From Pseudaquabacterium terrae (lineage in GTDB: Bacteria; Pseudomonadota; Gammaproteobacteria; Burkholderiales; Burkholderiaceae_C): 64,000 bases of DNA. The translations under genes and the position numbers were made by a program. Of the stretch, positions 1 to 20,662 are shown piece after piece. Position 1 is the first letter of the stretch, and each line of letters begins with the position of its first letter. The stretch is from contig NZ_JABRWJ010000005.1 of assembly GCF_013266755.1 (NCBI RefSeq), positions 558,001 through 622,000 on the forward strand, in the 5' to 3' direction. The notes under the pieces are model-generated. The model was not told where the DNA came from, searched no databases, and was given only the letters and a program-made list of their open reading frames with translations.

Positions 1-418
1 GAATGCTCCCTCCCCCTGCTGTCGGATCCAACACAGTTGCGTCCGCGATTCCCGTTCTGTTGCATTGGTCCCGAAGCCAGCAGCCTTCTTCAACTGTCGG
101 CAGGTATTTGAAGGCCCGTTCGTAACCGTATGGGTTCAACCCAAGGTCGTCACCGGTCTTTCGCGCACGATCTATCCGCTTTCTGGTCGCAACCGGATCG
201 CCGTGAATGCCAAGCAGATGGACGAACTTGTCTCGGTCGACGTCTGTGGGCAGTATCGACGCAGCAATGGCTGCCCGCGACGCCACAAGCGGCCGGCGGG
301 CCCACCACACGTGCAGGTAGTAGGTCGGCGGAAGCGCAGTCATGGAGCGCCGCTCACGCACGCTTTCCTCACCCAATGCGGCAATCGGCAGCCAATCTTC
401 GATCAACCGTCGGGTCAT
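1..418 (-). CDS. DUF1156 DNA methylase, N-terminal part (cut by window edge)
   Basis: Only the first 139 codons are in the window; the gene continues to the left. The N-terminus starts MTRRLIEDWLPIAALGEES and reaches a YLHVWWARRPLVASRAAI block around residues 33-50, the hallmark of DUF1156 proteins, which are predicted adenine- or cytosine-directed DNA methylases. The last visible residues, DPTAGGGSI, match methyltransferase motif I (D-P-x-A-G-x-G-S), the S-adenosylmethionine site. The start codon overlaps the stop of the upstream AlbA_2 gene as ATGA (415-418), so the two are translationally coupled and this is the fourth gene of the leftward operon that begins at 5737. Family knowledge: DUF1156 methylases often pair with DUF499 ATPases in predicted phage-defence loci. 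The methylation target cannot be inferred from this part. Confidence 0.85.
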   Translation of the reverse strand, partial: MTRRLIEDWLPIAALGEESVRERRSMTALPPTYYLHVWWARRPLVASRAAIAASILPTDVDRDKFVHLLGIHGDPVATRKRIDRARKTGDDLGLNPYGYERAFKYLPTVEEGCWLRDQCNRTGIADATVLDPTAGGGSI

Positions 419-2184
419 CTCGTTCTCTTCTTCTGCGTCGGCTCTTCACCGCCCGCGTATTCGTAGGTGGCGCCGCGCCCGTGCCCAGTCAGGCGTACAG
501 ACTCGGCCTCCAGTTCGTGGATTAGCCGGTTCACCTGCTGGCGCGTGTAGCCAGTCACCGCCCGCACTTCGGCGTTCGTCAGCCCTCGTTCGCCGCGACG
601 ATGGCGCTGCTTCAACATGTTCAGCACGCGCGTCTTTGCCACGTCGGCGTCGATGCGCTGGTCGCGCTCAGCGTTGCCGCGCCCCTCCAGCCGGCGGTGC
701 AGCGCGGGCTTCAGCCGCCACCAGGTGCCGCGGCCAACGCCACCGCGCTCCAAGTAACCGTAGTCCTGCGCCATCTCGTCCAGGATGTCGCGCATTTCCG
801 CCTCGCGGCGCTGGCAAAGCTCCGCGGCCAGCGCGGTGTCGATCTCCGCGTGCCCCAGCAAGTAGCGCAGCACAAGCATGTGGTCCACATCCAGCACGCG
901 GCCGGCCTTGCCCTCGTCGGCGATGAACTCGCGGAACGGCGCCGAGGTTTCCTGGCGCTTGAAGACGACGCGAACTGCGCTTTCTTCGTCGATGATGAGG
1001 GGCGGCTCCTTGCCCTCGATCAGCATGGCCTCGAACATGCGGCCCACGCCGAGGTTGCTGCGGTTCACCAGGCGCAACCGGGACAGCGCGTGCACCAGTA
1101 GTGGGTTGCGGGCTAAGGGTGGGTGATGAAGGATGTTGGCCGGCGTGATGCCGCCCACCAGGCCACCGGGGTTGCTGATCTCGAGCTTGCGCGGGTACTG
1201 CTTCACCAGTACCGGACTGGCCAGGCGCAAGTCCAGGTGGCACAGCGCATTGAGTAGGGCTTCGCGCAGGGCCACGGTGGGATAAGCGCGGAACTCGAAG
1301 TGATGCAGCCCGTGCTCCACGGTGGTGATGGGGTTGTCGGCATTGATGCGTGCCTCCAGCGCCTGCAGGGCCAGCGGCAGCGCCAGCTCGCCTTTGCCGG
1401 GTCCATCGCGGCCGTCGGCACGGTCGACGTATGTGGTGGCGCTCTTCATGCGCTCGTGCGTCCAGCCGTAGTTGGGCAGGTGGCGGGCCAAAGCGGTGGC
1501 GCTGCCGGCGATCAGCAGGCCCGCCTTGGTAAGCCGGCCGTCGCGCAGCACGTCCAGCGCACCTAGCAGGTCGAGGTCAGTCTTGCGCAGCAGGTCGGCC
1601 GGGGCCTGCTCCTGACGTGCCAGATCGCGCAGGCGTTCCACCGCGGCGGCCGAGAGCAAGGCCTCCACCGGCTCGGGCACCGCGACGGCGGTCACGTCGG
1701 ACTCGCCGCGCTCCACCATCAACCGGTCGCGCAGGTCGCCCGTCAGAGGCACGCAGTCCTTGCTGCGGCGCACGGTGCCGGCGCCGGCGGTGGTGGTGTA
1801 CGGAGGCAGTCCGCCGTGCACCTGCATTACCAGCAGGCGGCCCGTGCCTTCCGGCACCGGCAACTCCAGCACCTCTGGCGTGAGCTTGGGCGCCGTGCGT
1901 TCGTAGATGTCGCGCTTGAGTTGGTGCGGCTCGGCGGAGTCCGGAACGCCGACGATGGCTTTCGCCCGGCCGACGACGCGGTCGCGCACGCCCAGCACCA
2001 CGGTGCCACCGCCACCGTTGGCCATGCACACGGCCATGTCCACGGCTAGGCGCACGGCATGGCGGTCGTCGGCAGGCCATTCCTTGAAGTCGAGGTCCTG
2101 CGCCTCCAGCGTGTCGGCGTCGACCTGGTCCAGCCGGGCGAGGAGCGCACGAACTTCGGTGAGTTCCCGCATCAGGGTCGGCAC
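415..2184 (-). CDS. AlbA_2 (Schlafen-type) ATP-binding protein
   Basis: The 589-residue protein has an N-terminal AlbA_2/Schlafen-like domain (about residues 20-150) with the LDFKEWP and MANGGGGTVVLGV blocks typical of that fold. A central GHKL/HATPase_c_4-like region follows (about 290-400: REALLNALCH, ISNPGGL, NLGVGRMF), and the C-terminus is probably a winged helix (about 510-570). This architecture is common in proteins annotated as RecG-like or putative transcriptional regulators, and in defence loci, where Schlafen domains can be nucleases. The start is GTG at 2184; an in-frame ATG at 2172 is an alternative, and neither has a strong Shine-Dalgarno. It is third in the operon, 23 nt after the 162-aa gene, and overlaps the DUF1156 methylase by four bases. 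A role in sensing or cutting nucleic acid for the defence locus is inference. Confidence 0.85.
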   Translation of the reverse strand: MPTLMRELTEVRALLARLDQVDADTLEAQDLDFKEWPADDRHAVRLAVDMAVCMANGGGGTVVLGVRDRVVGRAKAIVGVPDSAEPHQLKRDIYERTAPKLTPEVLELPVPEGTGRLLVMQVHGGLPPYTTTAGAGTVRRSKDCVPLTGDLRDRLMVERGESDVTAVAVPEPVEALLSAAAVERLRDLARQEQAPADLLRKTDLDLLGALDVLRDGRLTKAGLLIAGSATALARHLPNYGWTHERMKSATTYVDRADGRDGPGKGELALPLALQALEARINADNPITTVEHGLHHFEFRAYPTVALREALLNALCHLDLRLASPVLVKQYPRKLEISNPGGLVGGITPANILHHPPLARNPLLVHALSRLRLVNRSNLGVGRMFEAMLIEGKEPPLIIDEESAVRVVFKRQETSAPFREFIADEGKAGRVLDVDHMLVLRYLLGHAEIDTALAAELCQRREAEMRDILDEMAQDYGYLERGGVGRGTWWRLKPALHRRLEGRGNAERDQRIDADVAKTRVLNMLKQRHRRGERGLTNAEVRAVTGYTRQQVNRLIHELEAESVRLTGHGRGATYEYAGGEEPTQKKRTR

Positions 2185-2207
2185 TCGTTACTTGGAACGG
2201 CGAACGC

Positions 2208-2696
2208 TCAGGCGTTCGGGTCGATAAGCAGGAAGCGCAGCGCCATCAGCACCCGGCGCGGGTACTTGCGGTGCATGGCCATCCCGAGCCAGTAGCCGGC
2301 TTCTTCCTTGGTCATCGCCTCAATGCCGGCGGCCACGGCTGCCATGTGATTGCGATTGCGCATGGGTGCCAGTGAGCGGAACAACAGACCCAGGTTGATG
2401 GCGAGTTCCTCGTCGATGGGCACTCGCAGCGCGTCGATGGCTGGCAGGTCGTGCAGGTTGATGCGCAGCGCCTTCAGCCTGCGCAGCAGGCGATGCTCCA
2501 CCAGCGACAGGTTGCGGCCATGCAGCCCGGCTACGTAAGTGGGCTGCTTGATATGAGGCGTGGCGATGGCCGGCAGCTGCCAGATTTCCAATGCCATGTC
2601 GGCACCCTGCTGGCGTTTGGCACGCAGTTCGTAGTGCGGCAGCGCAGATGCGGCCTGACGCGGGAGGACGACCAGTTGGGCGCGGGGGGTGGCCAT
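2208..2696 (-). CDS. Small uncharacterised protein of the DUF499/DUF1156 locus
   Basis: 162 residues, no enzyme motif recognised. The N-terminus (LVVLPRQ) is followed by predicted alternating strand/helix, a basic RLLRRLKALRIN stretch near residues 70-80, and a helical C-terminal half with GYWLGMAMHRKYPRRVLMALRFL. No signal peptide or membrane segment is visible. The ATG lies 11 nt after the stop of the DUF499 ATPase, and a strong GAGGAG Shine-Dalgarno overlaps that stop codon, so expression is coupled to the ATPase. The conserved tight placement between an ATPase and a Schlafen-type protein argues for an accessory subunit or adaptor. That is inference from context only. Confidence 0.8.
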   Translation of the reverse strand: MATPRAQLVVLPRQAASALPHYELRAKRQQGADMALEIWQLPAIATPHIKQPTYVAGLHGRNLSLVEHRLLRRLKALRINLHDLPAIDALRVPIDEELAINLGLLFRSLAPMRNRNHMAAVAAGIEAMTKEEAGYWLGMAMHRKYPRRVLMALRFLLIDPNA

Positions 2697-2707
2697 GGAT
2701 GGGCTCC

Positions 2708-5700
2708 TCAGGACTTCGTCTCGGCGACAACCGCCAGCACATGAGCCACGGGCGAGACCAAGCGCGTCAGGCGCTGGATCAGGCCCTCGGCGCTTGGGCC
2801 TTGCACGGCCAGCGGAGGGTCGAAGTGCAGCCGATAAGTGACGCTGGCATCGCTATCGCTGGCCGCCCGGAATTGAGGCTCCAGGTAGTCCTTCAGCGGT
2901 GTTGCGTCGTCCAGGTCACCCTTGAACGTGATAGTGGCTTCGGACTGGCTCGGTGTCTCGAACTGCGCCTCAAGCTCGATGCGCTTGGTGGCGTTGGGGA
3001 CCGACTTCACCAGGGCTAGCAGCTTCATGGCATCGCCCTTGTCGAAGGGGCGGATCGTCATCGAGCCGAAGCTCAAGGCACCGTTTTGGCGGGCGTTCTC
3101 GAACACGCGGGCAAGTGCGGCCTTGAGTACGTCTTCGGCCTGGAAGGTACCGGCCTGCTGGGCCACCGGGGCTGGGGCTGCGGCCGGGCTCGACGCTCCT
3201 GCGGGCGTGGGAGCAGGCCCACTGGTACCGGAAGGCGCGGGCGCCGACGATGCCGGAGGAGCAGGTGGGGTGCGTGGCCAGATGCCATGGTCCTGCGCGT
3301 AGGTGATCGTGTAGACGAAGGACTGCTCGTCCACCTTGATCTCGGCGTGCGGGTCGCCCTTGCCGCGAAGCAGTTCACCGGACTTGTAGATGTAGTCGCC
3401 CTGGTCGATGCCCTGGCGGATGCCCTTGATGAACACGTCATCGCCAACCAGCATGGGCAGGGCCGCGTCCTGTCGGAACTCGGCGCGCAGTGCGGCCGTG
3501 GTGATCTGGCCCTTCTTGAGCGGCGTACGGTCACGCACGTAGACGGGCGAGTCCGGCGGGTCGGTGGGCAGGCGCAGCTTGTTGACGTTCTGCAGCTGCG
3601 TCACGACCTGCTTCTGCCCGTCGCCCGGACGATCGGATGCGGTCTGGATGTCGACCACCGTGTGGGCCAGGTCGCAATTGGCTCCGTCTACGCGGTTGCG
3701 CGAGGGATAGAAGATGTGCCGGTAGCACTGCTGGATGGCGGTGGCAAGTTGGTGCTTGGTTCGACCGAAGTCCTCGTTCAGCTTGGCCACCTGGTAATCA
3801 GCCAGGTCCTTCAGCTTGCCCGGCACGCGCAGCGACTCCAGCGCCAGGTAGCGCAGCATCCGCGCCTTCATCACCGGGATGCCGGTCGCATCGGCGACGA
3901 CGAAACCGAGGTTGTTGCGGTTGTGTCGCCAGTCGTTGCCGGCGCCGCGATGCAGGAAGATCTTCTCGATCAGCGGATCGACGCGAACCGCGTCGCCGGC
4001 CACCTGCACCGCGTCGTGGCTGAGCAGCACGAGATACGGGCGCCCGCTGCCGTCGTCGTCGGCCACGTCATGCGGACCTGACGCGAAAGGCACCAGGTTC
4101 AGGTGTGGGCCGGCGAAGAGGTCGCGGATGTCGGCGTTGAGGCGCGACCTGGCTTCTTCGCGATCGACGTTGGTCTCTTCGCGGCGGATGATCTGCGTGA
4201 GGTTGGCCTCGGCCAGAAAGCGCAGCGGAGCGCCGGGCTTGTCGTCGATGTAGGCCGAGTCGACGACGAAGCGCTTGCGCGCATCGTCGATGAATGCGAT
4301 GTCGGTGCTGGGCCCGAGGACGGCGTAGCGCAACTCTTCGGGGTTCAGACCACGCAGCGACTCGTTGAAAGCAAGCGTGTGCATGAAAACCGTACGGGCC
4401 ACGTAAGAGCCGTAGCTGGGCTGCCCCTTGAACGCGCCCGCATCGAGCTGCTCGGCCAGAGACGAACTGCCATCGGCACCCGCGATCTCGGCCTTGATGG
4501 CCGGCACGTAGATGTCCTGCTTGAGTCGGGTGACCAGCTCCAACCGAATGGGCTCGAACCCGAGGTCGATGTGGTGCGTGTGGATGGCGAAGGCATCCGC
4601 GGGCGTCTCTTGCCACAGGCGCGCCACCGTGCGGGCCAGCAGGCGCAGCATGCCGCGCACGCGTTGGAAGTTGCCCAGGGTGCCCGTCTTCTGGGTCAGC
4701 ACCTTCACCAGTTCCGGGTGCAGCGGGTAGCCGGCCTCGAACTCTTCGACACGCCGGTCTTGGACGGGTGGTGTGGGCAGCTTGTCGCGGTTGGTGTCCC
4801 ACAGGGCCTTGTAGGCCGCGACGACCTGCCGCGCCTTGGTTTCGTCGACGCGGGTGAAGAGGCGGCGACAGACGACCCTGACGGTTTCGTCGTCCTCGGT
4901 GGGGTCGATCACCGTTGCCTTGCGCGCGGCGACGCTCTCGGCCTCGGCGAAGAAGGCGGCGATGTCCTGGGTTTCGCGGCTGTAGGCATCGGTGGCCTTG
5001 CCATCTCGACCGACGGCCAGCGTGAAGACCAGGGCGACGCGAGGCAGGCTCTCGACCGCCTTCATCAATGAGGTCATGAAGGCGAGCAACTGCTCGCCCG
5101 CGCGCTGTGCATTGCGCCCGGCAACCTTGCGGAGGTAGGGCGCTATCTCGTCGATCAGGATCACGGCCGGCTCTGTGCCCAGCAGTTCGCGCAGGGTGTC
5201 GGCACCGGGCGCGATGCCTTCCTTGTCGCTCTGTTCGACGAGCCGGTAGCCTGGTTCGTCAGCGAGGGCGAACGCCAGTTCGCCCCACGGGCTGAAGGCG
5301 CGGATCGAGTCGCTCAGGCGCCGGCCGTTCGCAGGGTCGGCGTTCTCACCGTCGAACGCGGCGATGCGGATGGGCGTGGCCGGGCGCAAGGCCGGTTCCA
5401 GGAACTCGTCGGCATTCGGCACGCCGACCAACCCCCGCATGGCGTGCGCCAAGCCGATGAGGGTGTGCGTCTTGCCGCCGCCGAACTGGGTGTCGAGGCG
5501 GAAGACCGCACCCACCTGCTCGGGGCGGCCCAGCACCCGCAGCGCGACCAGCTTCAAGGCATTCTTCAGGCCCTTGGTCGGGTAGGTGTTGGCGAAGAAG
5601 AGTTCGGGCTTTTTGTACTCGTCCGGTGCGTCGCCCCGGAGGACCTGCGACAGGTCGGCGGCAAAGTCACTCTCCTTAAGGACCCCCTGAAGAACATCGG

Positions 5701-5737
5701 AGCGGGGTTCGCAGATCCCGAAGAGATTGTCAGCCAT
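2708..5737 (-). CDS. DUF499 AAA-type ATPase of a defence/modification operon
   Basis: A 1009-residue cytoplasmic ATPase. Walker A is FGGGKTHT (residues 85-92) and Walker B is VILIDE (192-197); the N-terminal block KKPELFFANTYPTKGLKNAL is typical of DUF499 proteins. A long helical middle is followed by a Pro/Ala/Ser-rich linker at about 825-870 and a C-terminal domain of about 130 residues. DUF499 ATPases co-occur with DUF1156 methylases and helicases in islands proposed to act against phage (family knowledge). It is the first gene of the leftward operon. Upstream lies an 18-bp palindrome (5779-5796) and the remains of an integrase. Its partners downstream follow at 11 nt, 23 nt and a 4-nt overlap. 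The exact activity (loader, motor or translocase) cannot be decided from sequence. Confidence 0.9.
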   Translation of the reverse strand: MADNLFGICEPRSDVLQGVLKESDFAADLSQVLRGDAPDEYKKPELFFANTYPTKGLKNALKLVALRVLGRPEQVGAVFRLDTQFGGGKTHTLIGLAHAMRGLVGVPNADEFLEPALRPATPIRIAAFDGENADPANGRRLSDSIRAFSPWGELAFALADEPGYRLVEQSDKEGIAPGADTLRELLGTEPAVILIDEIAPYLRKVAGRNAQRAGEQLLAFMTSLMKAVESLPRVALVFTLAVGRDGKATDAYSRETQDIAAFFAEAESVAARKATVIDPTEDDETVRVVCRRLFTRVDETKARQVVAAYKALWDTNRDKLPTPPVQDRRVEEFEAGYPLHPELVKVLTQKTGTLGNFQRVRGMLRLLARTVARLWQETPADAFAIHTHHIDLGFEPIRLELVTRLKQDIYVPAIKAEIAGADGSSSLAEQLDAGAFKGQPSYGSYVARTVFMHTLAFNESLRGLNPEELRYAVLGPSTDIAFIDDARKRFVVDSAYIDDKPGAPLRFLAEANLTQIIRREETNVDREEARSRLNADIRDLFAGPHLNLVPFASGPHDVADDDGSGRPYLVLLSHDAVQVAGDAVRVDPLIEKIFLHRGAGNDWRHNRNNLGFVVADATGIPVMKARMLRYLALESLRVPGKLKDLADYQVAKLNEDFGRTKHQLATAIQQCYRHIFYPSRNRVDGANCDLAHTVVDIQTASDRPGDGQKQVVTQLQNVNKLRLPTDPPDSPVYVRDRTPLKKGQITTAALRAEFRQDAALPMLVGDDVFIKGIRQGIDQGDYIYKSGELLRGKGDPHAEIKVDEQSFVYTITYAQDHGIWPRTPPAPPASSAPAPSGTSGPAPTPAGASSPAAAPAPVAQQAGTFQAEDVLKAALARVFENARQNGALSFGSMTIRPFDKGDAMKLLALVKSVPNATKRIELEAQFETPSQSEATITFKGDLDDATPLKDYLEPQFRAASDSDASVTYRLHFDPPLAVQGPSAEGLIQRLTRLVSPVAHVLAVVAETKS

Positions 5738-5778
5738 GGGCGCCCTGAATGTTGTTCCCGAGGAAAATGTATCAGATC

Positions 5779-5796
5779 AATGTTCGATGGAACATT
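5779..5796. promoter_or_regulatory. Palindrome upstream of the DUF499 operon
   Basis: AATGTTC-GATG-GAACATT: perfect 7-bp arms with a 4-bp spacer, about 42 bp upstream of the DUF499 start codon. The surrounding DNA is AT-richer than its neighbours, as expected for a promoter. The position suits a repressor site controlling the operon. No cognate regulator is encoded next to it inside the window. Confidence 0.5.
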
Positions 5797-5895
5797 CGGC
5801 CGCGGAGCGCGTGCCGTCCCCCCATCCACCGCGCTGCGAGTTGGCGGAGCGCCGGTCAGCGGTTCTGTTCTGCTTGTGCACCGCCACGAAGGACC

Positions 5896-6180
5896 CGATC
5901 CAACAGGCAGGCCCAGGTGTGCTGCGTATCGTGGAACCGGAAGTCTCGATCCCCGACTTCTTCAGCGCGTTTCGCCAGGCCATGTTCACCGTCGCGCTCA
6001 GCGGTCGACCCTTGTAGAGGAAGACGTACTCAAGGTGCTTGCCGATCTGCCCGCGCAGGATCTCCATCGCCGTCGCGTTCAGCGGGATACGCAGCGTCTT
6101 GCGGCTCTTGATGTCGCGCGCGGCCACCGTCATCATCTGCCGCGGCATGTCGATCTGGTTCCAGTTCAGTCCCAGCACGA
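5896..6180 (-). pseudogene. Tyrosine integrase fragment (copy 1)
   Basis: Closely similar at DNA level over about 285 bp to the integrase at 7774-8820: the region encoding LNWNQIDMPRQMMTVAARDI, the K-R-P-L segment and AWRNALKKSGIE is shared. The N-terminal half and the C-terminal tyrosine region are absent. Relative to the other copy one base is missing after the codons for GIE, so the H-x-x-R box lies out of frame. It therefore cannot encode a working recombinase. It keeps AAG (Lys) at the position where copy 2 has an amber stop. It forms the upstream border of the DUF499 operon and is probably the scar of an earlier integration or of recombination between integrase copies. Confidence 0.85.
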
Positions 6181-7083
6181 CTCATTCGAGACGCGCTGCA
6201 ACTCAACCAAGTAAGCCAACGGGTGGCTTGCCTGCCAATCGACCATAGCACGCTTGCGCTTCGCGAACTCAATCGCAACCTTCCCCAATTCAACAATCGC
6301 CGCACTAGATGCCCCTACCCACGGCCCTCCGAGAAGCGCTGTTGCAATACCGGCAGAAGCGGCGGCCTGAAGGCTCTGGGCATCAACAAGGGCCGAGAGT
6401 GACCCAGTAGCGGTATCGAATCCATGTTTCCTACGGGCCTGGTCGTACTCGTCGAGCCGACTGGCAAGATCATCTTCCACGAATGCGAGGCTCTTGCCTG
6501 CGTACTTCTCGTCGAGGAACGCCCGAAGGCGCTGCAACCGTCGCCGAGACTCACCATCCTGTCGAACCTCGATGATCTGCTCCCAAGACGCTGAAGCCGT
6601 GTTGATGAGTTCCATTCCGAAGACGCGGATCAAAGGATCCTCAACATTGCTCGAGGATTCCTCACCCGTTGCGGGCAGTAGGACGGCTGCGCCTCGAATT
6701 CCGAGTGTTGCTGCGTAAGTCGCGAAGTGCTTGCGAATAGGCTCGGTCTCGCTGGACGTTGCGTTGCTCAAGTACGCCGCGGCAAGGTCCGCATACGAGT
6801 CATCGACTGACGAGGACGCTGTCGACTGCCGATATGGTCGCGCTCGACTGGCAAATTCATCCCAGCTGTCAACGATTCGCCCAAGTTGGGAGTAGCGCTC
6901 AGACTCCGTGGCAGGCAATGTGTCGAAGACAATGTTAATGAGTGCCCGTGAGGGAACTGGTTCGGGAAAGTCAGCGACGATATCGCGACCTGTGCCAGCC
7001 AATCTCCGGAATGCAACCGGCAACACTCTGTCGAAGTAGAGAGCGGCTTGCTTGAGCTGTCCAAAGGCAACGACCGATCGCAT
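6166..7083 (-). CDS. Unrecognised 305-aa protein between integrase relics
   Basis: No family recognised. The protein begins MRSVVAFGQLKQAALYFDRV and is mostly helical. It has a charged helical segment (about 180-220: RRRLQRLRAFLDEKY, LASRLDEYDQARRK) followed by a Gly/Ala-rich, moderately hydrophobic stretch (about 240-275: ALLGGPWVGASSAAIVELG) that could be a short membrane hairpin or a buried core. Base composition is clearly less GC-rich than the surrounding genes, suggesting foreign origin. The last few codons (SCWD and stop) are read from the integrase remnant, so the native C-terminus may have been lost when the two sequences were joined. The Shine-Dalgarno is weak. A cargo or defence gene of the mobile element is plausible but unproven. 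Confidence 0.6.
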   Translation of the reverse strand: MRSVVAFGQLKQAALYFDRVLPVAFRRLAGTGRDIVADFPEPVPSRALINIVFDTLPATESERYSQLGRIVDSWDEFASRARPYRQSTASSSVDDSYADLAAAYLSNATSSETEPIRKHFATYAATLGIRGAAVLLPATGEESSSNVEDPLIRVFGMELINTASASWEQIIEVRQDGESRRRLQRLRAFLDEKYAGKSLAFVEDDLASRLDEYDQARRKHGFDTATGSLSALVDAQSLQAAASAGIATALLGGPWVGASSAAIVELGKVAIEFAKRKRAMVDWQASHPLAYLVELQRVSNESCWD

Positions 7084-7773: not shown

Positions 7774-8820
7774 TCAAGACGCCCTCCCTTCCGGACCGGC
7801 ACCACGGCTAGGCCCAGCATCTCTCCCATGGGACTGGAGAATCTCGTCCAGCACCGCCGCATGCCTCGCCAAATGCTCCGGCGCCAGATGCGCATACCTC
7901 TCCACCATCGAGTCCGACTTCCACCCACCCATCTCCTTGATCATCCCCTTCGGCACGCCGTTCTGGATCAGCAGGCTGGCCCACGTATGCCGCGTGTCGT
8001 GGAACCGGAAGTCCTCGATGCCCGACTTCTACAGCGCGTTGCGCCAAGCCGTGTTCACCGTGGCGTTCAGCGGCTGGCCCTTGTAGACGAAGACGTACTC
8101 GGCGTGCTTACCGATCTGCGCGCCCAGGATTTCCATCGCCGTCGCATTCAGCGGGATGCCCAGCGTCTTGCGGCTCTTGATGTCGCGTGCAGCCACCGTC
8201 ATCATCTGCCGCGGCATGTCGATCTGGCTCCACTTCAGCTCCGGCACGTTGGCGCGCCGCAGGCCGGTGGCGAAGGTGAACCGGGTCAGCACGCGCAGGT
8301 GCTCGGGCAGGTTGCGCAGCAAGGTGTCGATTTCGCGCGGCGTCAGGTAGCGCACCCTGCCCTCCGGCTCGCGGTGCAGCCGGATCGTCGGCACGGTGTC
8401 GATCCAGTTCCACTCCCGCATCGCGCGGCGCAGGATGGAGCGCAGCAGTTGGTAGTAGCGGTTGCGCGTCGCCGGCGCCTTGTCGCCCTCCTGCCCTTCG
8501 ACGACGGACTGCATGCGGTCCCACGTCAGCTCGGTCAGCGGCAGGCGGCGAAAGAACGGCGTGAGGAGCTCGATCTTCTTCGCGTCGTCGCGGATCGAGG
8601 CCTTGTGCGCCTGCTCGTTCAGCCAGCGCAGCGCCGCGTCTTCCCAGGTGTGCTTGGGCTTGTCGCCCAGCTTGACCTGGCGCCACAGGTCGTTCTTCAG
8701 CCGGTCGTGCAGCTCCTGGGCCGCCTTGCGGTCAGTTGTCTCAGCTGATTGTCTAACTCGATGTCCACCTGGCGTCGTGATGTCGATCCACCAGGTCGTG
8801 CCGCGTTTGCGGATGGCCAT
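7774..8820 (-). pseudogene. Tyrosine integrase with internal amber stop (copy 2)
   Basis: Phage-type site-specific recombinase, 348 codons if the stop is read through. The N-terminus (MAIRKRGTTWWIDITTPGGH) is an arm-binding Arm-DNA-bind-like domain, the SAM-like core-binding domain spans about 60-150, and the catalytic domain starts near 165. The first catalytic Arg is in ATGLRRAN (about residue 200). Codon 264 is TAG (8029-8031), where copy 1 has AAG. The same frame then continues through HDTRHTW (H-x-x-R box) to [13 protein letters not shown] with the nucleophilic Tyr, ending at 7774. The truncated 263-aa product lacks half the active site, so the gene is inactive unless the amber codon is suppressed. 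Confidence 0.9.
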
Positions 8821-10050: not shown

Positions 10051-10380
10051 ATGACAACCGAGACGACCCTTCCGCTGGAAGTCACGACGGCAGCGCAGAG
10101 GTTCGGCGAGAACGTCCGGCTCGCCCGCGTCCGCCGTCACATGACCCAAGAAGAACTCGCTCAAGCCTGCGGCATCACCCGCAAGACCCTGTACGCCCTC
10201 GAGAAAGGCGCATCAGGCGCAACCGTCGCCACGGCCTTTACCGTGCTCTGGAAGCTCGGCCTGCTCAGCACGGCGGCTGCGCTTGCCGACCCCGATGCCG
10301 ACGAGCACGGCAGGATTCTCGAGGCTGCCCGCAGGCCGAAGCGCGTGCGCAACCCGCTCGACAGCGACAACGACTTCTGA
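10051..10380 (+). CDS. hipB: HipB-like XRE antitoxin/repressor
   Basis: 109 residues with a Cro/C1-type HTH at about residues 18-70 (NVRLARVRRHMTQEELAQAC, then TRKTLYALEKG) and a short polar tail. It is followed after 3 nt by a HipA-type kinase, the standard antitoxin-toxin order, and preceded by a dense set of palindromic repeats it probably binds. Family knowledge: HipB neutralises HipA by complex formation and represses the operon. Helix-turn-helix geometry and context make the call firm; the specific binding site is inferred. Confidence 0.9.
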   Translation: MTTETTLPLEVTTAAQRFGENVRLARVRRHMTQEELAQACGITRKTLYALEKGASGATVATAFTVLWKLGLLSTAAALADPDADEHGRILEAARRPKRVRNPLDSDNDF

Positions 10381-10383
10381 CCC

Positions 10384-11658
10384 ATGGCCAACGACGAACA
10401 AGCCTGCTACGTCTACATCCAGCTCCCTGGGACGATGGAAACGGTGCCCTGCGCGTCGCTCAAGGTTCGTCTCGTCGGCGCAGGCGCCTTCGAAGGCACC
10501 TTCACGTACGGCAAGCGCTATCTCGAACGGCCTGAGGTGGTGGCCTTGGACCCGTTCCACCTACCCTTGTCGACGCGTCCTCAGAGGTTCACGAAGCTCA
10601 AGGGCATTCCCGGCGCCGTTCGTGACGCGAGCGCGGACGCTTGGGGCCGTCGAGTCATTCAGGCCAAGCTGCAGCGGCCCGAAGGCGACATCCAGGAAGT
10701 GGAGTACCTGCTCAACGGGCCGGACGATGGCGCTGGCAACCTGAGCTTCGGAAGAACCGCAACTCCGCCCGCTCCGCGGCGACCCTTCAATCGCACGCAT
10801 CAGTTGCCTGCCCTCATCGAAGCAGCCGAGAAGCTGGAAGAAGACGGACGGCTTCCACACGAGATACTCGAGGAACTCGAACCCGGCACGAGCATGGGTG
10901 GTGCAAGACCCAAAGTGACGGTCGAGGACGACCACAGAGTCTGGCTGGCCAAGCTGCCTGAGAAGGCCGACCGGCACAACATGCAGCGCATCGAGTACGC
11001 GACACTCGAGTTGGCCCGCGCCAGCGGCCTTCGCGTCTGCGGAACCCGCCTCGAGCGCGTCGCGAACCGCGACGCGCTGATGCTCGACCGCTTCGACCGC
11101 GAATGGAATCCGGACGCCAACGCCTACTGGCGCTACGGGCTTGTCTCGGGTCTGACGGTGATTGACGCTGAAGATGGCTACCTCGGTCGCGAGCGCTGGT
11201 CGTACCCGCTGCTGGCGGATGAACTTCGGCGCTGGTCCGTCAAGAGCAACGATGACCGTCGCGAATTGTTCCTCCGCATGGTGTTCAACGCCATGGTCAC
11301 CAACAACGACGACCATCCGCGCAACCATGCGCTCTTGCAGACCAGAGGTGGCTGGCGGCTATCACCCGCGTACGACATCCTGCCCGTCCCCATGGTCTCG
11401 GTCGAGCGGCGGGACTTGGCTCTCGAGGTCGGCCGCTTCGGTCGAGCCGCGAGTCTCTACAACATCCTGTCGCACTGCGATGCGTTCGGGCTCTCGAAGG
11501 AAGAGGCCCAGGCGATGATTGACGGGATGCTCGCCGTCGTCCGCGGCTGGCGGGAGTTCTTCACCGAACGCGGTGTCGAACAGCGCAGCATCGAGATGCT
11601 CGAGCCGGCCATGCTCCCGCCTTCCTTCTTCCGCGACACGCCACCAGGCGCCGTCTGA
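10384..11658 (+). CDS. hipA: HipA-type serine/threonine kinase toxin
   Basis: 424 residues, in the usual HipA size range. Visible kinase elements: the glycine-rich loop GTSMGGARPK (168-177), the ATP-contacting lysine in WLAKLP (K190), the catalytic loop NNDDHPRNH (307-315) with catalytic Asp309 or Asp310 and Asn314, and the metal-binding aspartate in SPAYDILP (331). The N-terminal HipA_N-like subdomain spans about 20-130. HipA of E. coli phosphorylates glutamyl-tRNA synthetase and causes dormancy (known); the target here is unknown. All active-site positions appear intact, so the toxin should be functional. Start ATG at 10384 is 3 nt after the hipB stop. Confidence 0.92.
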   Translation: MANDEQACYVYIQLPGTMETVPCASLKVRLVGAGAFEGTFTYGKRYLERPEVVALDPFHLPLSTRPQRFTKLKGIPGAVRDASADAWGRRVIQAKLQRPEGDIQEVEYLLNGPDDGAGNLSFGRTATPPAPRRPFNRTHQLPALIEAAEKLEEDGRLPHEILEELEPGTSMGGARPKVTVEDDHRVWLAKLPEKADRHNMQRIEYATLELARASGLRVCGTRLERVANRDALMLDRFDREWNPDANAYWRYGLVSGLTVIDAEDGYLGRERWSYPLLADELRRWSVKSNDDRRELFLRMVFNAMVTNNDDHPRNHALLQTRGGWRLSPAYDILPVPMVSVERRDLALEVGRFGRAASLYNILSHCDAFGLSKEEAQAMIDGMLAVVRGWREFFTERGVEQRSIEMLEPAMLPPSFFRDTPPGAV

Positions 11659-11704
11659 CTGATTCGACACCGGAGCTACAGAAAATGTGCACGCAAGCCT
11701 GACC

Positions 11705-11725
11705 TGTACGGTCAAATACCGTACA
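11705..11725. promoter_or_regulatory. Operator palindrome of the DUF1778/GNAT module
   Basis: TGTACGGT-caaat-ACCGTACA: perfect 8-bp arms with a 5-bp spacer, 23 bp upstream of the antitoxin start and just before its AAGGGAGA Shine-Dalgarno. Antitoxins of this family are ribbon-helix-helix proteins that bind palindromes in their own promoter with the toxin as co-repressor (known), so this is the likely autoregulatory site. Confidence 0.65.
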
Positions 11726-11747
11726 TTTCCAGAAGGGAGAGTTTGCC

Positions 11748-12035
11748 ATGACGACCGAGACCCCCCGAACGCAGCGCATCGAGGCCCGCATCGCGCCTGA
11801 CGTGCTGGCCGTACTCAAGCGCGCCGCCGAGATCGAAGGACGAAGCCTCAGCGACTTCCTCGTCGGCGCCGCTCAGGAGGCTGCGCGTCGCACGATCGAG
11901 CAGACGCAGATCATCCGCCTGTCGATTGAAGAGCAGCAGCGTTTCGCCGCGTTGTTGCTTGATCCTCCTGCGCCCGCTCCTGCGATGGCGCGCGCAGCGA
12001 AGGCTCACAAGAAGCTGATCTCGTCGTCGCGGTGA
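11748..12035 (+). CDS. DUF1778 (TacA-like) ribbon-helix-helix antitoxin
   Basis: 95 residues: the N-terminal RHH motif RIEARIAPDVLAVLKRAAEI, then GRSLSDFLVGAAQEAA (about 7-45), and a C-terminal region containing SIEEQQRFAALLLDPP (about 60-78). This is the segment that in TacA antitoxins wraps around and blocks the acetyltransferase. The preceding AAGGGAGA at 11733-11740 is a good Shine-Dalgarno. Its stop overlaps the GTG start of the toxin by four bases, and the palindrome at 11705-11725 is its probable operator. Composition matches the neighbouring hipBA module. Confidence 0.9.
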   Translation: MTTETPRTQRIEARIAPDVLAVLKRAAEIEGRSLSDFLVGAAQEAARRTIEQTQIIRLSIEEQQRFAALLLDPPAPAPAMARAAKAHKKLISSSR

Positions 12036-12532
12036 GCGGTCAGTTCCGCATCGAGGCGCTTGCGCCGGAACATGATCGCGCGGGCTTCGTCTGCGGCAGC
12101 GATCCGCTCGACAGGTATCTGCGCGAACAAGCGTCGCAAGACATGCGACGCCGCACCAGCGTGTGCTACGTCGCCATAGACGAGAAGACGAGTGCCATCG
12201 CCGGGTACTACACCCTGGCCGCCGGCAGCGTTCCGCTCACGGACCTGTCCGAAGACCTGGTCAGGAAGCTGCCGCGCTATCCCCTTGTCCCCGTGGCCCG
12301 CGTCGGGCGCCTCGCGGTAAGCCTGGCGTTCCAGAAGCGCCAGCTCGGCGCAGCGCTCCTGTGGGATGCGGGGTCGCGCGCGATGGATTCAGGCCTCGGC
12401 GTCTTCGCATTGGTTGTCGATGCCAAGGACGAGACGGCCGCCGCGTTCTACAGGCACCACGGGTTTGTCAATTTCAGCCGCAAACCACTGACCCTTGTGC
12501 TTCCGCTCGCCACCCTTGCGAAGAAGAAGTGA
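12032..12532 (+). CDS. GNAT toxin (TacT-like aminoacyl-tRNA acetyltransferase)
   Basis: 166 residues with a GNAT fold: SDPLDRYLREQASQDMRRR near the N-terminus is characteristic of TacT/AtaT-like toxins, VARVGRLAVSLAFQKRQLGA contains the acetyl-CoA pyrophosphate loop (Q/R-x-x-G/A), and AAFYRHHGF carries the conserved catalytic Tyr. Members acetylate the amino group of charged tRNAs and stop translation (known). GTG start within the GTGA overlap with the antitoxin. All core residues are present, so it is predicted active. The target tRNA cannot be read from sequence. Confidence 0.9.
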   Translation: MSGQFRIEALAPEHDRAGFVCGSDPLDRYLREQASQDMRRRTSVCYVAIDEKTSAIAGYYTLAAGSVPLTDLSEDLVRKLPRYPLVPVARVGRLAVSLAFQKRQLGAALLWDAGSRAMDSGLGVFALVVDAKDETAAAFYRHHGFVNFSRKPLTLVLPLATLAKKK

Positions 12533-12608
12533 CCCGCTGAAACCACTCCCAGGCAATGAGAAATTGGCTTTCACTCGTTTCACCCGACCCGCAGCAGGAA
12601 CTTCACCG

Positions 12609-15600
12609 GTGAGCCGCACCGCCTACGGCCGCACGTGGTGGGGCGCGCAGTGGCTGCAGGCGCTGACGCAGATCGACCACGAGAACCGCCTGCCGCGTGG
12701 GCGCAGCTACGCCAACCGCGGCGCGGTGCTCGGCCTCGAGGTGGAAGAAGGTCGCGTACGTGCCCACGTGCAGGGCTCGCGGCCGCGACCCTACGAGGTC
12801 GAGGTCCAGATCCCCGCGGTCTCCAAGGCCGACGCCGCGCGGCTGGTGAAGCGCCTGGCGGCCGATGCCGGCCTGATTGCGCGACTGCTCAATCGCGAGC
12901 TCGATCCTGCCGTGCTGCAGGAGGCCCGGCGCCTGGACATTCCCGTGTTCCCCTCGCGCTGGAGCGACCTGAAGATGCACTGCTCGTGCCCCGACTGGGC
13001 CGTGCCGTGCAAGCACCTGGCCGCGGTGATCTACCTGCTCAGCCAGGAGATCGACGGCGATCCGTTCCTCGTGTTCCGGCTGCGCGGACTGGACCTTCCC
13101 GTGCTGCTGCAGGCGCAGGGCGTGCACATCGGCGCCGATGCGGCGGCAGGCTTGCCGAGCCTGGTGCAGGCGTATTTCGAGGACGCTCCGAGCACGGCAA
13201 AGCCAGCGATCGGGGTCCCCGGCGTGCCGGCACTGGACCGACTCGACTTCACCACCATTCCCGACCTGCGCGAACCACTGTGGCAGGTGCTGCCGGCCCA
13301 GCCGGTGTTCTTCCGCAGCGGCGACTTCCGCGAGCTCGCGCGCCGCGTGATGGCGCGTATCGCGCGGCATGCGCGGCAGGTGATGGAGGCCGCCGCGCCG
13401 CCTGCCGACGACGACGGCACTGCCCTGCCCGAAGGGCGCTTGCAATTGATCGTCGACGAGCAGGGCGCTCTCGCGATCAGCGGCGTCGAGCACCCCGGCC
13501 GCTCGCCGCAGGCCTGGCCCGAGTTGCTCGAGATCGTCGCCGGCATCGCACCGGCGCGCCTGGGCGACGTATCCGAGCACCTGGCCGCCTTGCACACGCT
13601 GCGGCTCATGGCCTTGCACCTGCTGGCCAAGGGTGCCGTCGTGCCCCAGGTCTTCACGGTCGAGGGCAACACGCTGGGCATGCGCTGGTGCGCTGCCGAG
13701 CTGGACGCCATCGTGCACGGCATGCTGGCGCATGCGGCATCCGCCCTGCCGCCGCAACTGGTGATGCGCCGCCGCGGACGCAAGACCGAGCCGCTCGAGC
13801 CTTCGCAACAGGCGCGCATCGTGCTGTCCGCCCTGCTCGACCACTTCGTCTGGTCCGCCAACGCAGCATCCACGGAGAAGCCGCCCGGAGACAAGCTGCT
13901 GTCGCTCTTCTTCGCCGGCGGTCGTGCCCGCTTCGATGGCCCCGGCGAAGGTGCCGTCGGCGGCAGCATCCATGCGTGGCTGGCCCGGCTGCACCTGGCG
14001 CGCCAGGCGCACACGCCAGTCCTGCGCATCGAGGACGACGACAGCGGATCGGCCTTCGCACTGTCGATTGCCGTGGCCGACGATGCATCGGCGCTGCACA
14101 CCCCCACGCCATTGGCCAAGGTCCTCTCGGCGCCGGCCTGGGGCTCGAGCCGCATGGCCGTGCTGCAGACGGTCGCGATGCTGGCCGAGTTCCATCCGCC
14201 GCTGCACGAGTACGTGCGATCCGGTGCGCGCAAACCGCTGCAGCTGGGCCCGCAGGAGTTGCCGGCGCTGCTCTTCGAGACGCTGCCCGCATTGCGCCTG
14301 ATGGGCATCCGCGCGCTGCTGCCGCGGGCGCTGGAGCGCCTGCTGCGGCCGCGCCTGTCGATGCAGATCAAGGCCAGGAGCGCCAGCGCGACGGCGTTCC
14401 TGAGCGCCGATGACGTGTTCTCCTTCGACTGGAGGGTATCGCTCGGCGACGAGCGCATCACGCCGGCCGAGTTCGAACGCCTGCTCGGCAAGGCGCAAGG
14501 CGTGGTGCGTTTCCGCGGCCAGTACGTCTACCTCGATCCGGCCGAGATGGCGCAGCTGCGCGCGCGCCTGGCCAAGCCGGCCACGCTGCCGGGATCCGAG
14601 CTGCTGCGCACGGCGCTGGCCGGCGAAGTCGACGGCGCGCCGATCGGCCTGAACAAGGCGGCCGAGAAGCTCGTCGAGCAGCTGACCCGCAGCGCCGACG
14701 TGCCGCTGCCGGCCGGACTGCGCGCCACGCTGCGGCCCTATCAGCAGCGCGGCTACGCGTGGCTGTGGCGCAATGCCCGGCTCGGTCTCGGCAGCGTCAT
14801 CGCCGACGACATGGGCCTGGGCAAGACGCTGCAGGTGATTGCGCTGCTGCAACGGCTGAAGGAAGACGGCGCGCTGGACGATGCGCGGGCGCTGGTCATC
14901 GTTCCGACCAGCCTGCTGACCAACTGGCAGAAGGAGGCCGAGCGCTTCGCGCCGGGATTGCGCGTCGAGGTGTTCCATGGCGCGAAGCGCGAGCTGTCCA
15001 AGCTGCGGCCCGACGTGCTGCTGACGACTTATGGCGTGGTGCGCAGCGAGTCGGCGCTGCTCAAGGCGATGAGCTGGCGCCTGGTGGTCATCGACGAGGC
15101 GCAGAACATCAAGAACGCGGGCGCCGCGCAGTCGCGCGCCGTCAAAGCAATAACGGCCAATGGCTACGTGGCCATGAGCGGCACGCCGGTGGAGAACCGG
15201 CTCTCGGAATACTGGTCGATCATGGACTTCGCGCAGCGCGGCTACCTGGGCGGGCCCACGCACTTTGCGCGCGAGTACGCCACGCCGATCCAGACCCATC
15301 GCGACGCCGCGGCGGCCGAGCGGCTGCGCAAGGTCATGGCGCCCTTCGTGCTGCGACGCCTGAAGTCCGACAAGTCGATCATCAGCGACCTGCCGGACAA
15401 GGTGGAGCAGGACCAGTTCTGCTCGCTGAGCCGCCAGCAGGCGGCGCTGTACGAATCGGTGGTGAAGGAAGGCCTGAAGAGCATCGCCGGCGAGTCCGAC
15501 ACCTTCCAGCGCCAGGGCCTGGTGCTGCAGATGATCCTGGCGCTCAAGCAGGTGTGCAACCACCCGGCGCACTACCTGAAGCAGGGCGCGGCCGACCCGG

Positions 15601-17479: not shown

Positions 17480-18100
17480 ATGCCTTCGCGCCCCGTCCCC
17501 GCCACCCAGGAGCACGCAGTCCTCGAGCTCGCCAAGTGCAGCCCCCTGCTGCGCGCCCGAGACCTGACCGAACACTCGCTTCCGACTGTCGTCCTCAGTC
17601 GCCTGGTGGCCGCAGGCAAGCTCGAACGAGTCGCGCGCGGCGTCTACAGCCTTCCGGCACGCCAGCTCAGCGAACACCGCTCGCTCGCAGAGGTGTGCCT
17701 GCGCGTGCCGCAGGGCGTGGTGTGCCTGCTGTCCGCGCTGCGAGTACACGAAATCGGCACGCAGGCGCCCTTCGAGGTCTGGATCGCCATCCCCCATCAC
17801 TCGCCGGCACCGCGCCTGGATCAGCCGGCCGTACGGGTCGTCCGCATGTCCGGACCGTCGCTGACCGAAGGGATCGAGCCGATGACGATCGACGGCGTCA
17901 AGGTGCCGGTCTTCAACGTCGCAAAGACCGTGGCCGACTGCTTCAAGTTCCGCAACAAGATCGGCCTGGATGTCGCACTGGAAGCGCTGCGCGACGGCTG
18001 GTCGCAGCGCAAGCTGACGATGGATGCCATCTGGCACTACGCGACCATCGATCGGGTGGCCAACGTGATGCGCCCCTACCTCCAAAGCGTCACGGCATGA
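17480..18100 (+). CDS. abiEi: AbiEi-family type IV antitoxin/repressor
   Basis: 206 residues. The N-terminal winged helix (about 10-60: LLRARDLTEHSLPTVVLSRL, LERVARGVYSLP) is followed by an AbiEi C-terminal domain containing VCLLSALRVHEIGTQAPFEV and IDGVKVPVFNVAKTVADCFK (about 75-165). AbiEi proteins repress the operon and antagonise the AbiEii nucleotidyltransferase (known). The stop overlaps the toxin start as ATGA at 18097-18100. Located in the island, consistent with an abortive-infection or maintenance role. Confidence 0.9.
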   Translation: MPSRPVPATQEHAVLELAKCSPLLRARDLTEHSLPTVVLSRLVAAGKLERVARGVYSLPARQLSEHRSLAEVCLRVPQGVVCLLSALRVHEIGTQAPFEVWIAIPHHSPAPRLDQPAVRVVRMSGPSLTEGIEPMTIDGVKVPVFNVAKTVADCFKFRNKIGLDVALEALRDGWSQRKLTMDAIWHYATIDRVANVMRPYLQSVTA

Positions 18101-20098: not shown

Positions 20099-20145
20099 GA
20101 CTGTTAATCCGTAGATCCCTGGTTCGAGCCCAGGTCGGGGAGCCA
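20099..20145 (+). other. tRNA-Asn 3' fragment: attachment-site scar at the island boundary
   Basis: The sequence reads as the last 47 nt of a tRNA-Asn: anticodon loop CTGTTAATC (anticodon GTT), the T-arm CCTGGTTCGAGCCCAGG, the acceptor strand and GCCA end. No matching 5' half with TCCCCGA exists upstream, so it is not a complete gene. Integrative elements that enter at the 3' end of a tRNA leave such a duplicated 3' segment at their distal end (known). This places the intact tRNA-Asn to the left of the window and makes position 20145 the right boundary of the island that fills the left third. Confidence 0.8.
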
Positions 20146-20662
20146 AATTCAAAGAGTCAGCTTCGCAAGGAGCTGACCCAATACTGAAAAGGCCGGATGG
20201 ATTCTTGGGTGACCAAGACTTTGGCCGGTTCGTCCTGGTCCGTGGGTGAGTACACCGATCGCAGTGCTGGCGCCGCAGCCATTGCAACGATGCGTCGCCT
20301 TGCCGAAATTGGCCGTGGATCAAGCGGCTTCATTTCCACGAATATCCGGAAGGCACCTCCCGCACGTTCCGGTAGATCCCGGTCAAACTTCAACTCTGAT
20401 GTCGAGCCAGCCCTGGCGCGTTCAGTGCCGAATCAGGTTCTCGATCACCACCGTACGACGTTTCGTGCGACTCCGTGACAGAACTCAGGTCAGGCGCACG
20501 GTGCCGAAACTTGCCTACACTCTCGTTGTCCTGGCGGATGCAGTCGTTCGAAAGCTCCAGGTGAATTCCATGTCGAGGCGTGCCGATACTGGCCCCTCGC
20601 CCGATCGTGCGCACGATGTTCCCGACAACCCATCGCTCACCCTCTCCTGAACCGCTTCTTGC
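20146..20662. other. Gene-free stretch right of the island boundary
   Basis: 517 bp without a convincing gene on either strand. A perfect hairpin, GTCAGCT/AGCTGAC with an 8-nt loop, lies at 20156-20177 just beyond the tRNA scar and may be the terminator of the ancestral tRNA transcript, though no T-run follows. The remainder has mixed composition and could be decayed coding DNA. Confidence 0.4.

What the first reader, a model, noticed from the sequence alone, without database searches (positions are those of the whole stretch)
1..5737. Compact DUF499 / unknown / AlbA_2 / DUF1156 operon: candidate anti-phage system
Four tightly coupled genes combine an AAA-type ATPase, an unrecognised 162-aa protein, a Schlafen-type ATP-binding protein and a DNA methylase. 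DUF499 and DUF1156 are known to co-occur in loci thought to be related to DISARM or BREX-like defence. The Schlafen-type subunit in the middle is a nuclease candidate. The operon is truncated by the window, so more subunits (helicase, nuclease) may follow.
Basis: partly seen in the sequence, partly recalled or inferred. Interest (0 to 1): 0.72.

Follow-up and report, generated by a model that had tools for sequence, protein, structure and literature searches.

The report
BREX-related anti-phage operon, DUF7680 type
This is a six-gene bacterial operon that most likely recognises and destroys unmarked foreign DNA, a variant of a known family of anti-phage systems in which one small core part is replaced by a look-alike and spare defence genes are plugged in between the core genes.

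Summary
The operon is real and continues left of the window (L003). Order, minus strand: DUF499 ATPase, DUF7680 (the '162-aa unknown', PF24728), Schlafen/AlbA_2-HATPase, DUF1156 methylase, an unplaced 145-aa protein, HKD/PLD-SNF2 helicase. It is a DUF499-centred BREX-related (BR) system, also called Hma, closest to BR type 2 (PMC12839542). Type 2 is marked by DUF3780; this genome shows none and has DUF7680 in that place. DUF7680 and DUF3780 models share one nine-element layout and never co-occurred in the loci read; sequence evidence for kinship is weak. In 80 loci fetched by DUF7680 alone, DUF499 lies upstream in 77; the other 3 are cut there. Methylase follows in 67, and 44 of those carry extra DNA before it. 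The Schlafen gene is such cargo, adjacent in 11 of 80. The operon lies in a tRNA-Asn island with HipA, TacA/GNAT and AbiE genes; a same-genus genome holds a type I R-M set at that site. Defence is inferred; nothing was assayed. New variant of a known kind.

The parts
2708..5737 (-). DUF499 AAA+ ATPase, 1009 aa (HmaC-like), first gene of the operon
   Evidence: PF04465 E 3e-35; PADLOC HmaC E 1.3e-93; Walker A lysine 71 of 71, Walker B DE 72 of 72
2208..2696 (-). DUF7680 protein, 162 aa, core subunit, positional and predicted-fold counterpart of DUF3780
   Evidence: PF24728 E 4.1e-42; loci survey; models
415..2184 (-). Schlafen/AlbA_2 + HATPase_c_4 protein with a C-terminal winged-helix-like match, 589 aa, embedded accessory effector
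   Evidence: PF04326 E 4.8e-12, PF13749 E 2.9e-16, MarR_2 E 7e-4 below cut-off; alignment
2..418 (-). 5' end of the DUF1156 DNA methylase; the gene continues left of the window (L003:12461-15418, 985 aa), followed there by a 145-aa ORF (L003:12027-12464) and the HKD/PLD-SNF2 helicase (L003:8809-12027)
   Evidence: PF06634; HmaB E 2.4e-73, PLD_Helicase E 2e-74
20099..20148 (+). 49/50 repeat of the 3' half of the tRNA-Asn at L003:6564-6639; right edge of the island that carries the operon

Best explanation
A restriction-modification-like anti-phage system of the DUF499-centred BREX-related (BR/Hma) class, of a DUF7680-bearing lineage closest to BR type 2. The DUF1156 methylase marks host DNA, probably at adenine. 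The DUF499 ATPase with its partner DUF7680 forms the recognition and scanning complex. DUF7680 stands where DUF3780 stands in type 2 and has the same predicted element layout, so it probably does the same job, proposed in print for DUF3780 as a reader of DNA modification. On unmarked DNA the SNF2 translocase brings its HKD/PLD nuclease to cut. The Schlafen-HATPase protein is a swappable back-up effector lodged between core genes, probably an RNase (tRNA cutter) set off when the main system is hit. Shown here: gene content, motifs, conservation of the core, cargo slots, island context.
For: Core families. NCBIfam 'DUF499_antiphage', 'DUF1156_antiphage', 'phospholipD_antiphage' hit, though far under cut-off (158/1200, 235/1000, 374/1100 bits). 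HKD motif H, K, D, G, S, N invariant in 46 of 46 helicases, DPPY in 58 of 58 methylases, Walker B DE in 72 of 72 ATPases. 80 loci fetched with DUF7680 alone: ATPase upstream in 77 (75 within 400 bp), the other 3 cut at the contig end; methylase downstream on the same strand in 67. Order ATPase-small subunit-methylase-helicase as in 16 DUF3780 loci where all four are seen. Same nine-element layout in both models; layout score 110 against shuffled mean 55, maximum 94, 0 of 200 as high. No locus holds both (94 with DUF7680, 26 with DUF3780). Own genome: no DUF3780, one DUF499. Schlafen RNases with a HATPase and wHTH are reported linked to BREX/BR loci in at least 1017 taxa (PMC12839542, section 35 part 1). 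Island and module exchange at the tRNA-Asn.
Against: Nothing was assayed. Homology of DUF7680 and DUF3780 is not established: hhalign E-values run from 3.4e-4 (probability 38%) to 0.09 (0.6%) in five pairs, and a sixth aligned elsewhere at E 0.5; the score beats 100 column shuffles only narrowly (19.1 against a maximum of 18.5); profile searches against 10,925 ORFs give no significant cross-hit (best E 7.4). The DUF3780 model has a mean pLDDT of 75.5 and no superposition could be made. The ATPases of the two kinds lie in separate clades, so the shared place could be convergence. One DUF3780 locus (L154) has the helicase before the ATPase. Four of 80 DUF7680 loci with 10 kb downstream show no methylase on either strand (L060, L070, L089, L093). 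The Schlafen residues were compared with recalled, not fetched, active sites. The methylase has only a sub-threshold N6_N4_Mtase match (20.9 of 26.7 bits), and PADLOC's 2021 paper calls HmaB an m5C methylase.
Confidence: 0.78

Rival explanations
1. The core is a BR defence system, but DUF7680 is not a DUF3780 relative: it is an unrelated small subunit (adaptor or regulator of the ATPase) that came to sit in the same place.
For: Weak or failed sequence comparisons; separate ATPase clades.
Against: Same order and near-equal lengths of nine predicted elements, same place after the ATPase, no co-occurrence in the loci read, same C-terminal register in five of six hhalign pairs.
Confidence: 0.3
2. 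The Schlafen-HATPase protein is not an effector but a DNA-binding regulator of the operon, using its AlbA_2 and winged-helix parts.
For: AlbA_2-type domains and a MarR_2 match (E 7e-4, below cut-off) fit DNA binding; it lies inside the operon.
Against: It is absent next to DUF7680 in most loci (adjacent in 11 of 80) and its place is taken by other defence-type proteins such as AAA_15/AAA_21, GmrSD_N, PIN and Fic proteins, which fits an effector slot; acidic residues E27, D32 and D68 are invariant in 8 of 8 aligned rows.
Confidence: 0.25
3. The locus acts on plasmids or other mobile elements, or in competition between islands, and does little against phages.
For: It is part of an island at a tRNA-Asn that also holds toxin-antitoxin-type genes.
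Against: BR/Hma systems are reported as phage defence (passages of PMC12839542); the same site holds a type I R-M set in a same-genus genome.
Confidence: 0.15

Closest known systems
Type-2 DUF499-centred BREX-related (BR) system (Rakesh & Krishnan 2026, PMC12839542; sections 30 and 33 and others read)
   Same: DUF499 ATPase, DUF1156 methylase, SNF2 helicase with N-terminal HKD nuclease, small subunit right after the ATPase, same gene order
   Different: DUF7680 in place of DUF3780; ATPase in a clade apart from 19 DUF3780-linked ATPases
Hma system (PADLOC 2021, PMC8565338, passages) with Hma-embedded candidates (PMC12111858, passages)
   Same: Helicase, methylase and ATPase match HmaA, HmaB, HmaC models; extra genes lodged between core genes, as reported for Hma-embedded candidates
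   Different: Order is ATPase-first, whereas the 2 loci here that show all three core genes and neither small subunit run helicase-methylase-ATPase (L147, L149); DUF7680 has no PADLOC hit at E <= 0.1 and the Schlafen protein only weak pAgo-associated ones (best E 3.5e-7)
Gao et al. 2020 'restriction-like' system with phospholipase D, DUF1156, DUF3780 and DUF499 (recalled; not fetched)
   Same: Presumably the source of the NCBIfam names DUF499_antiphage, DUF1156_antiphage and phospholipD_antiphage that hit here
   Different: DUF3780 absent; extra Schlafen and 145-aa genes; scores far under the NCBIfam cut-offs
Type-3 BREX
   Same: By the published analysis its ATPase, methylase and helicase are homologous to the BR ones; BrxHI model hit E 2.7e-82
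   Different: No PglZ match among the six genes

Membership tests
BR (DUF499-centred BREX-related) systems as a class | DUF499 ATPase + DUF1156 N6-type methylase + SNF2 helicase in one locus | tested here: met
   the N6 specificity itself is not tested
[quoted passage not shown]
   PLDc_2 at 136-203 (E 3.8e-4, 20.8 bits, under Pfam's 27), HxK and GSxN motifs invariant in 46 of 46; PADLOC PLD_Helicase E 2e-74
BR type 2 | standalone DUF3780 gene in the core locus (98% of taxa in the paper) | tested here: not met
   No DUF3780 among Pfam matches of the six genes nor in the whole genome; DUF7680 in its place with the same predicted layout
BR type 1 | helicase with C-terminal PD-(D/E)XK nuclease; only three core genes | tested here: not met
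   No nuclease family other than PLDc_2 among the six Pfam matches of the helicase; DUF7680 is an extra core gene. A diverged nuclease domain could escape Pfam
BR type 3 | PglZ and iSTAND genes in the locus | tested here: not met
   No PglZ match among the six genes; iSTAND evolves fast and was not tested apart
Hma (PADLOC) | HmaA, HmaB and HmaC together | tested here: met
   HmaC E 1.3e-93, HmaB E 2.4e-73, HmaA E 3.9e-59 though not the best helicase model
DISARM | DrmB (DUF1998) with its partners (recalled) | tested here: not met
   No DUF1998 among the Pfam matches of the six genes; DrmD and DrmA models hit the helicase (whose helicase list shows 25 of 53 families)
BREX | PglZ in the locus | tested here: not met
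   No PglZ match among the six genes
Anti-phage defence | lowers phage plating in vivo | not testable with these tools
   needs an assay
Bacterial Schlafen RNase | AlbA_2 fold with acidic catalytic residues cutting tRNA | tested here: inconclusive
   Domain hit and invariant E27, D32, D68 in 8 aligned rows; active-site equivalence recalled, activity untested

The most novel reading that the evidence does not exclude
DUF7680 marks a fourth, unnamed BR lineage, and DUF7680 and DUF3780 are one superfamily of recognition subunits that licenses the ATPase-methylase-nuclease machine. Viral contigs carry free copies of this subunit (DUF7680-like in L102 and L103; DUF3780-like in L121 and L124-L127, none with a DUF499 match in the stretch held), which may be phage decoys that disarm the system.
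Probability: 0.3. Interest if true: 0.65.

Novelty: new variant of a known kind. Interest (0 to 1): 0.45.

Why it matters
The BR paper found no definitive homologue of DUF3780; a second family with the same place and predicted layout gives that subunit a comparison point and makes its role testable by swaps. No paper in the library holds the word DUF7680, and the lineage (219 relatives in one scan of representative genomes) may be missed by equivalog models whose cut-offs the window's genes miss by far. The two cargo slots are a place to look for new effectors: 44 of 67 loci have more than 500 bp of extra DNA in the first.

Tried and rejected
DISARM membership was rejected (no DUF1998; only helicase hits). 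A solved or viral fold for DUF7680 was sought without success (no match at E <= 0.001). A sequence proof of DUF7680-DUF3780 kinship was sought by hhalign in six alignment pairs, a shuffle control (score 19.1; 100 column shuffles mean 11.7, maximum 18.5; reversed 15.4) and profile searches (no significant cross-hit; the DUF3780 profile scores DUF7680 ORFs slightly above the rest, p 0.005, the reverse does not, p 0.93); it stays weak. The 145-aa protein has no match in Pfam, NCBIfam, plasmids, viral contigs or the 80 loci; PADLOC and PHROGs were not asked with its right frame. Several ORFs first scanned left of the operon were in wrong frames, later sorted by codon-position GC. The Schlafen profile drifted and also hits methylases, so its counts were not used. 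Slot lengths are between tblastn segments, so a few (for example slot B in L020) are overstated. The tree kept about one in three of most DUF7680 rows, dropped ATPases under 850 aa, is a quick build and warns of long branches; the join of the three divergent DUF7680 rows (L011, L013, L157) with the other 25 has support 27 only. Among the loci counted some overlap (L105/L156 and L106/L157 are the same places). Literature searches for the Gao system gave nothing of use. Gao et al. 2020, the 2024 bioRxiv preprint on embedded defences and the Schlafen preprint were not seen; they are recalled or cited through other papers.
Full report
What is there. The four reported genes are present on the minus strand at the stated coordinates. 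The window lies at G000:C45:558001-622000, so the left side could be read. The operon continues: DUF499 ATPase (1009 aa), DUF7680 (162 aa), Schlafen/AlbA_2-HATPase (589 aa), DUF1156 methylase (985 aa), a 145-aa protein, and an HKD/PLD-SNF2 helicase (1072 aa from its ATG). The last four genes overlap by 1 to 4 bp. The short genes are not chance ORFs: DUF7680 has a 144-bit Pfam match, and the 145-aa ORF overlaps the stop or start codon of both neighbours, although nothing similar to it was found in the collections tried.

Family. PADLOC names the ATPase HmaC and the methylase HmaB; the helicase matches BrxHI, PLD_Helicase, DrmD, PbeA and HmaA models. NCBIfam gives its three 'antiphage' equivalogs as hits to ATPase, methylase and helicase, all far below cut-off, which says: same class, distant lineage. 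The class is described in PMC12839542 (abstract, passages, sections 29, 30, 33 and part 1 of 2 of section 35 seen) as DUF499-centred BREX-related systems with three types; the paper treats Hma as the same thing. The HKD nuclease at the helicase N-terminus is a mark of type 2. The other mark, DUF3780, is missing: no match in this genome in two searches, in which 4 of 185 class genomes and 1 of 349 phylum genomes had one.

The 162-aa protein. DUF7680 occurs in 5 of 369 class genomes and 4 of 349 phylum genomes (the window's own genome and G272 are in both counts). A scan of representative genomes found 219 relatives, of which the best 80 were kept. These were picked by DUF7680 alone, so their neighbours are a fair test. 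A DUF499 ATPase lies upstream within 400 bp in 75 of 80; in L030 the gap is 708 bp and in L090 a second DUF7680 match lies between; the other three have 140 bp or less of sequence on that side. The methylase follows on the same strand in 67 of 80. Of the 13 others, 7 have 5.4 kb or less of sequence left; in L083 and L085 the methylase is on the opposite strand nearby; in L060, L070, L089 and L093 none was found. DUF7680 is therefore a core part.

DUF7680 and DUF3780. The DUF7680 model (mean pLDDT 85) has strands 21-28, 34-41, 53-59, helix 60-76, strand 90-94 and helices 96-109, 115-127, 130-142, 146-158. The DUF3780 model (75.5) has strands 28-33, 40-49, 56-65, helix 66-86, strand 97-101 and helices 103-116, 121-133, 136-150, 159-169. 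The paper describes DUF3780 as a four-stranded sheet with five helices and no definitive homologue (section 32, inside section 30 as read). A crude layout score of my own is 110 against a shuffled-order mean of 55 and maximum of 94 in 200; it counts order and length of elements, not geometry. In 16 DUF3780 loci where all four genes are seen the order is ATPase, DUF3780, methylase, helicase, the order found here; L154 has the helicase before the ATPase. No locus of those read holds both small genes (94 and 26; some loci overlap). Against this, sequence evidence is thin: hhalign finds the same C-terminal register in five of six pairs (not 51) but with E-values from 3.4e-4 to 0.09 and probabilities of 0.6 to 38%, the shuffle control is beaten only narrowly, and profile searches give no significant cross-hit. 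In the ATPase tree the DUF3780-linked (19 rows), neither-linked (7) and main DUF7680-linked (25) sets are separate supported groups, with long-branch warnings. I read DUF7680 as the counterpart of DUF3780, probably homologous, in a separate lineage.

Catalytic parts. Among loci with DUF7680, the HKD residues H, K, D, G, S, N are invariant in 46 of 46 helicases, DPPY in 58 of 58 methylases, the Walker A lysine in 71 of 71 and Walker B DE in 72 of 72 ATPases. In numbering from the start codons these are H144/K146, D552-Y555, K89 and D196-E197 in the window's proteins. That DPPY points to adenine is recalled; the Pfam N6_N4_Mtase match is below cut-off.

Cargo slots. Between DUF7680 and methylase, 23 of 67 loci have at most 150 bp and 44 have more than 500 bp; between methylase and helicase, 30 and 16 of 46. 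Of 150 predicted cargo ORFs I gave 94 to Pfam, leaving out 56 (short, reverse-strand, doubtful, or near-copies, some Schlafen rows among them), so the tallies are not frequencies: AAA_15 and AAA_21 in 14 each, GmrSD_N in 7, Schlafen and HATPase_c_4 in 6 each, Fic, PIN and HSP70 in 2 each. The Schlafen protein lies next to DUF7680 in 11 of 80 loci. A Schlafen+HATPase protein also lies between DUF3780 and methylase in L153, and beside a locus with neither small gene in L145. Genes lodged within Hma loci have been reported as 'Hma-embedded candidates' (passages of PMC12111858; 'guilt-by-embedding' in passages of PMC12255303), and Schlafen RNases with HATPase and wHTH are reported linked to BREX/BR loci in at least 1017 taxa (PMC12839542). 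The idea of cargo is thus known; its regular place in this lineage was measured here.

Setting. A tRNA-Asn (L003:6564-6639) left of the operon has a 49/50 copy of its 3' half at window 20099-20148. Of 12 other same-genus genomes searched, 9 share a long stretch of the left flank, and in 6 of these the match ends between the tRNA end and 63 bp beyond it. In two of them (L170, L171) the DNA after the tRNA then matches the window for some 25-30 bp right of the repeat before their contigs end soon after; in a third (L169) a second copy of the tRNA end lies 7.8 kb away. So the operon lies in an island of about 28.5 kb, which also holds HipA, a TacA1-GNAT pair, an SNF2/DUF3670 helicase, a MazG-PIN protein and AbiEi/AbiEii, and incomplete integrase frames. 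The same-genus genome G700 has, next to the same tRNA, a type I R-M set (HsdR, HsdM, HsdS by Pfam) with an AAA_21 ATPase, and then the same HipA neighbour at 96% identity. This looks like defence-module exchange at a hotspot and argues for a defence role.

How it most likely works. Methylase marks self; ATPase with DUF7680 inspects DNA; helicase-nuclease cuts unmarked DNA; the Schlafen protein is a second line that stops translation. My odds: BR-class defence system about 0.9, DUF7680 taking DUF3780's part about 0.7, Schlafen protein an effector about 0.65.

Novelty. Class known; the DUF7680 lineage and its link to DUF3780 appear new: no paper of the library holds 'DUF7680' and the BR paper's main text does not name it. 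Its supplement could not be read, so the authors may have counted such loci under another heading.

Noticed in passing
window 20099-20148 and L003:6564-6639: tRNA-Asn and a 49/50 repeat of its 3' half bound an island of about 28.5 kb; same-genus genomes share the tRNA's left flank.
   Followed up: yes
L168 (same-genus genome G700): Next to the same tRNA-Asn a type I R-M set replaces the operon, with the same HipA neighbour.
   Followed up: partly
L102:7824-8264, L103:7740-8201, L121:7977-8441, L125:7854-8351: Orphan DUF7680-like and DUF3780-like genes in viral contigs with no DUF499 match in the stretch held (also L124, L126, L127): possible decoys against BR systems.
   Followed up: partly
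L098, L099, L100: Complete ATPase-DUF7680-methylase-helicase sets on contigs classed as viral.
   Followed up: no
window 5777-6178 and 8029-8820: Two incomplete tyrosine-integrase frames with similar sequence flank a DUF6236-like gene (6166-7083; 25.8 bits, just under cut-off).
   Followed up: no
window 17480-18942: AbiEi/AbiEii type IV toxin-antitoxin pair.
   Followed up: no
window 10051-12532: HTH + HipA pair and a TacA1-GNAT pair, two more toxin-antitoxin-like units in the island.
   Followed up: no
window 12495-16127: SNF2 helicase with DUF3670 and a sub-threshold SWIM match; hits ZorD and DpdE models through its helicase part.
   Followed up: no
window 16161-17330, minus strand: Fusion of a MazG-like domain with a PIN7/NYN nuclease-like domain and a lysine/alanine-rich tail.
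   Followed up: no
L090: Two DUF7680 matches and methylase matches spread over 6.5 kb in one locus: perhaps a tandem duplication of part of the operon.
   Followed up: no
L082:12647-14557, L095:8261-10168: Predicted proteins starting MAGRVFGLDFGTTNSLLAI, Hsp70-like by eye and by the two HSP70 matches, each last of three cargo ORFs between DUF7680 and methylase.
   Followed up: no
L003:12027-12464: 145-aa protein coupled to methylase and helicase, with no relative found in the collections tried.
   Followed up: partly
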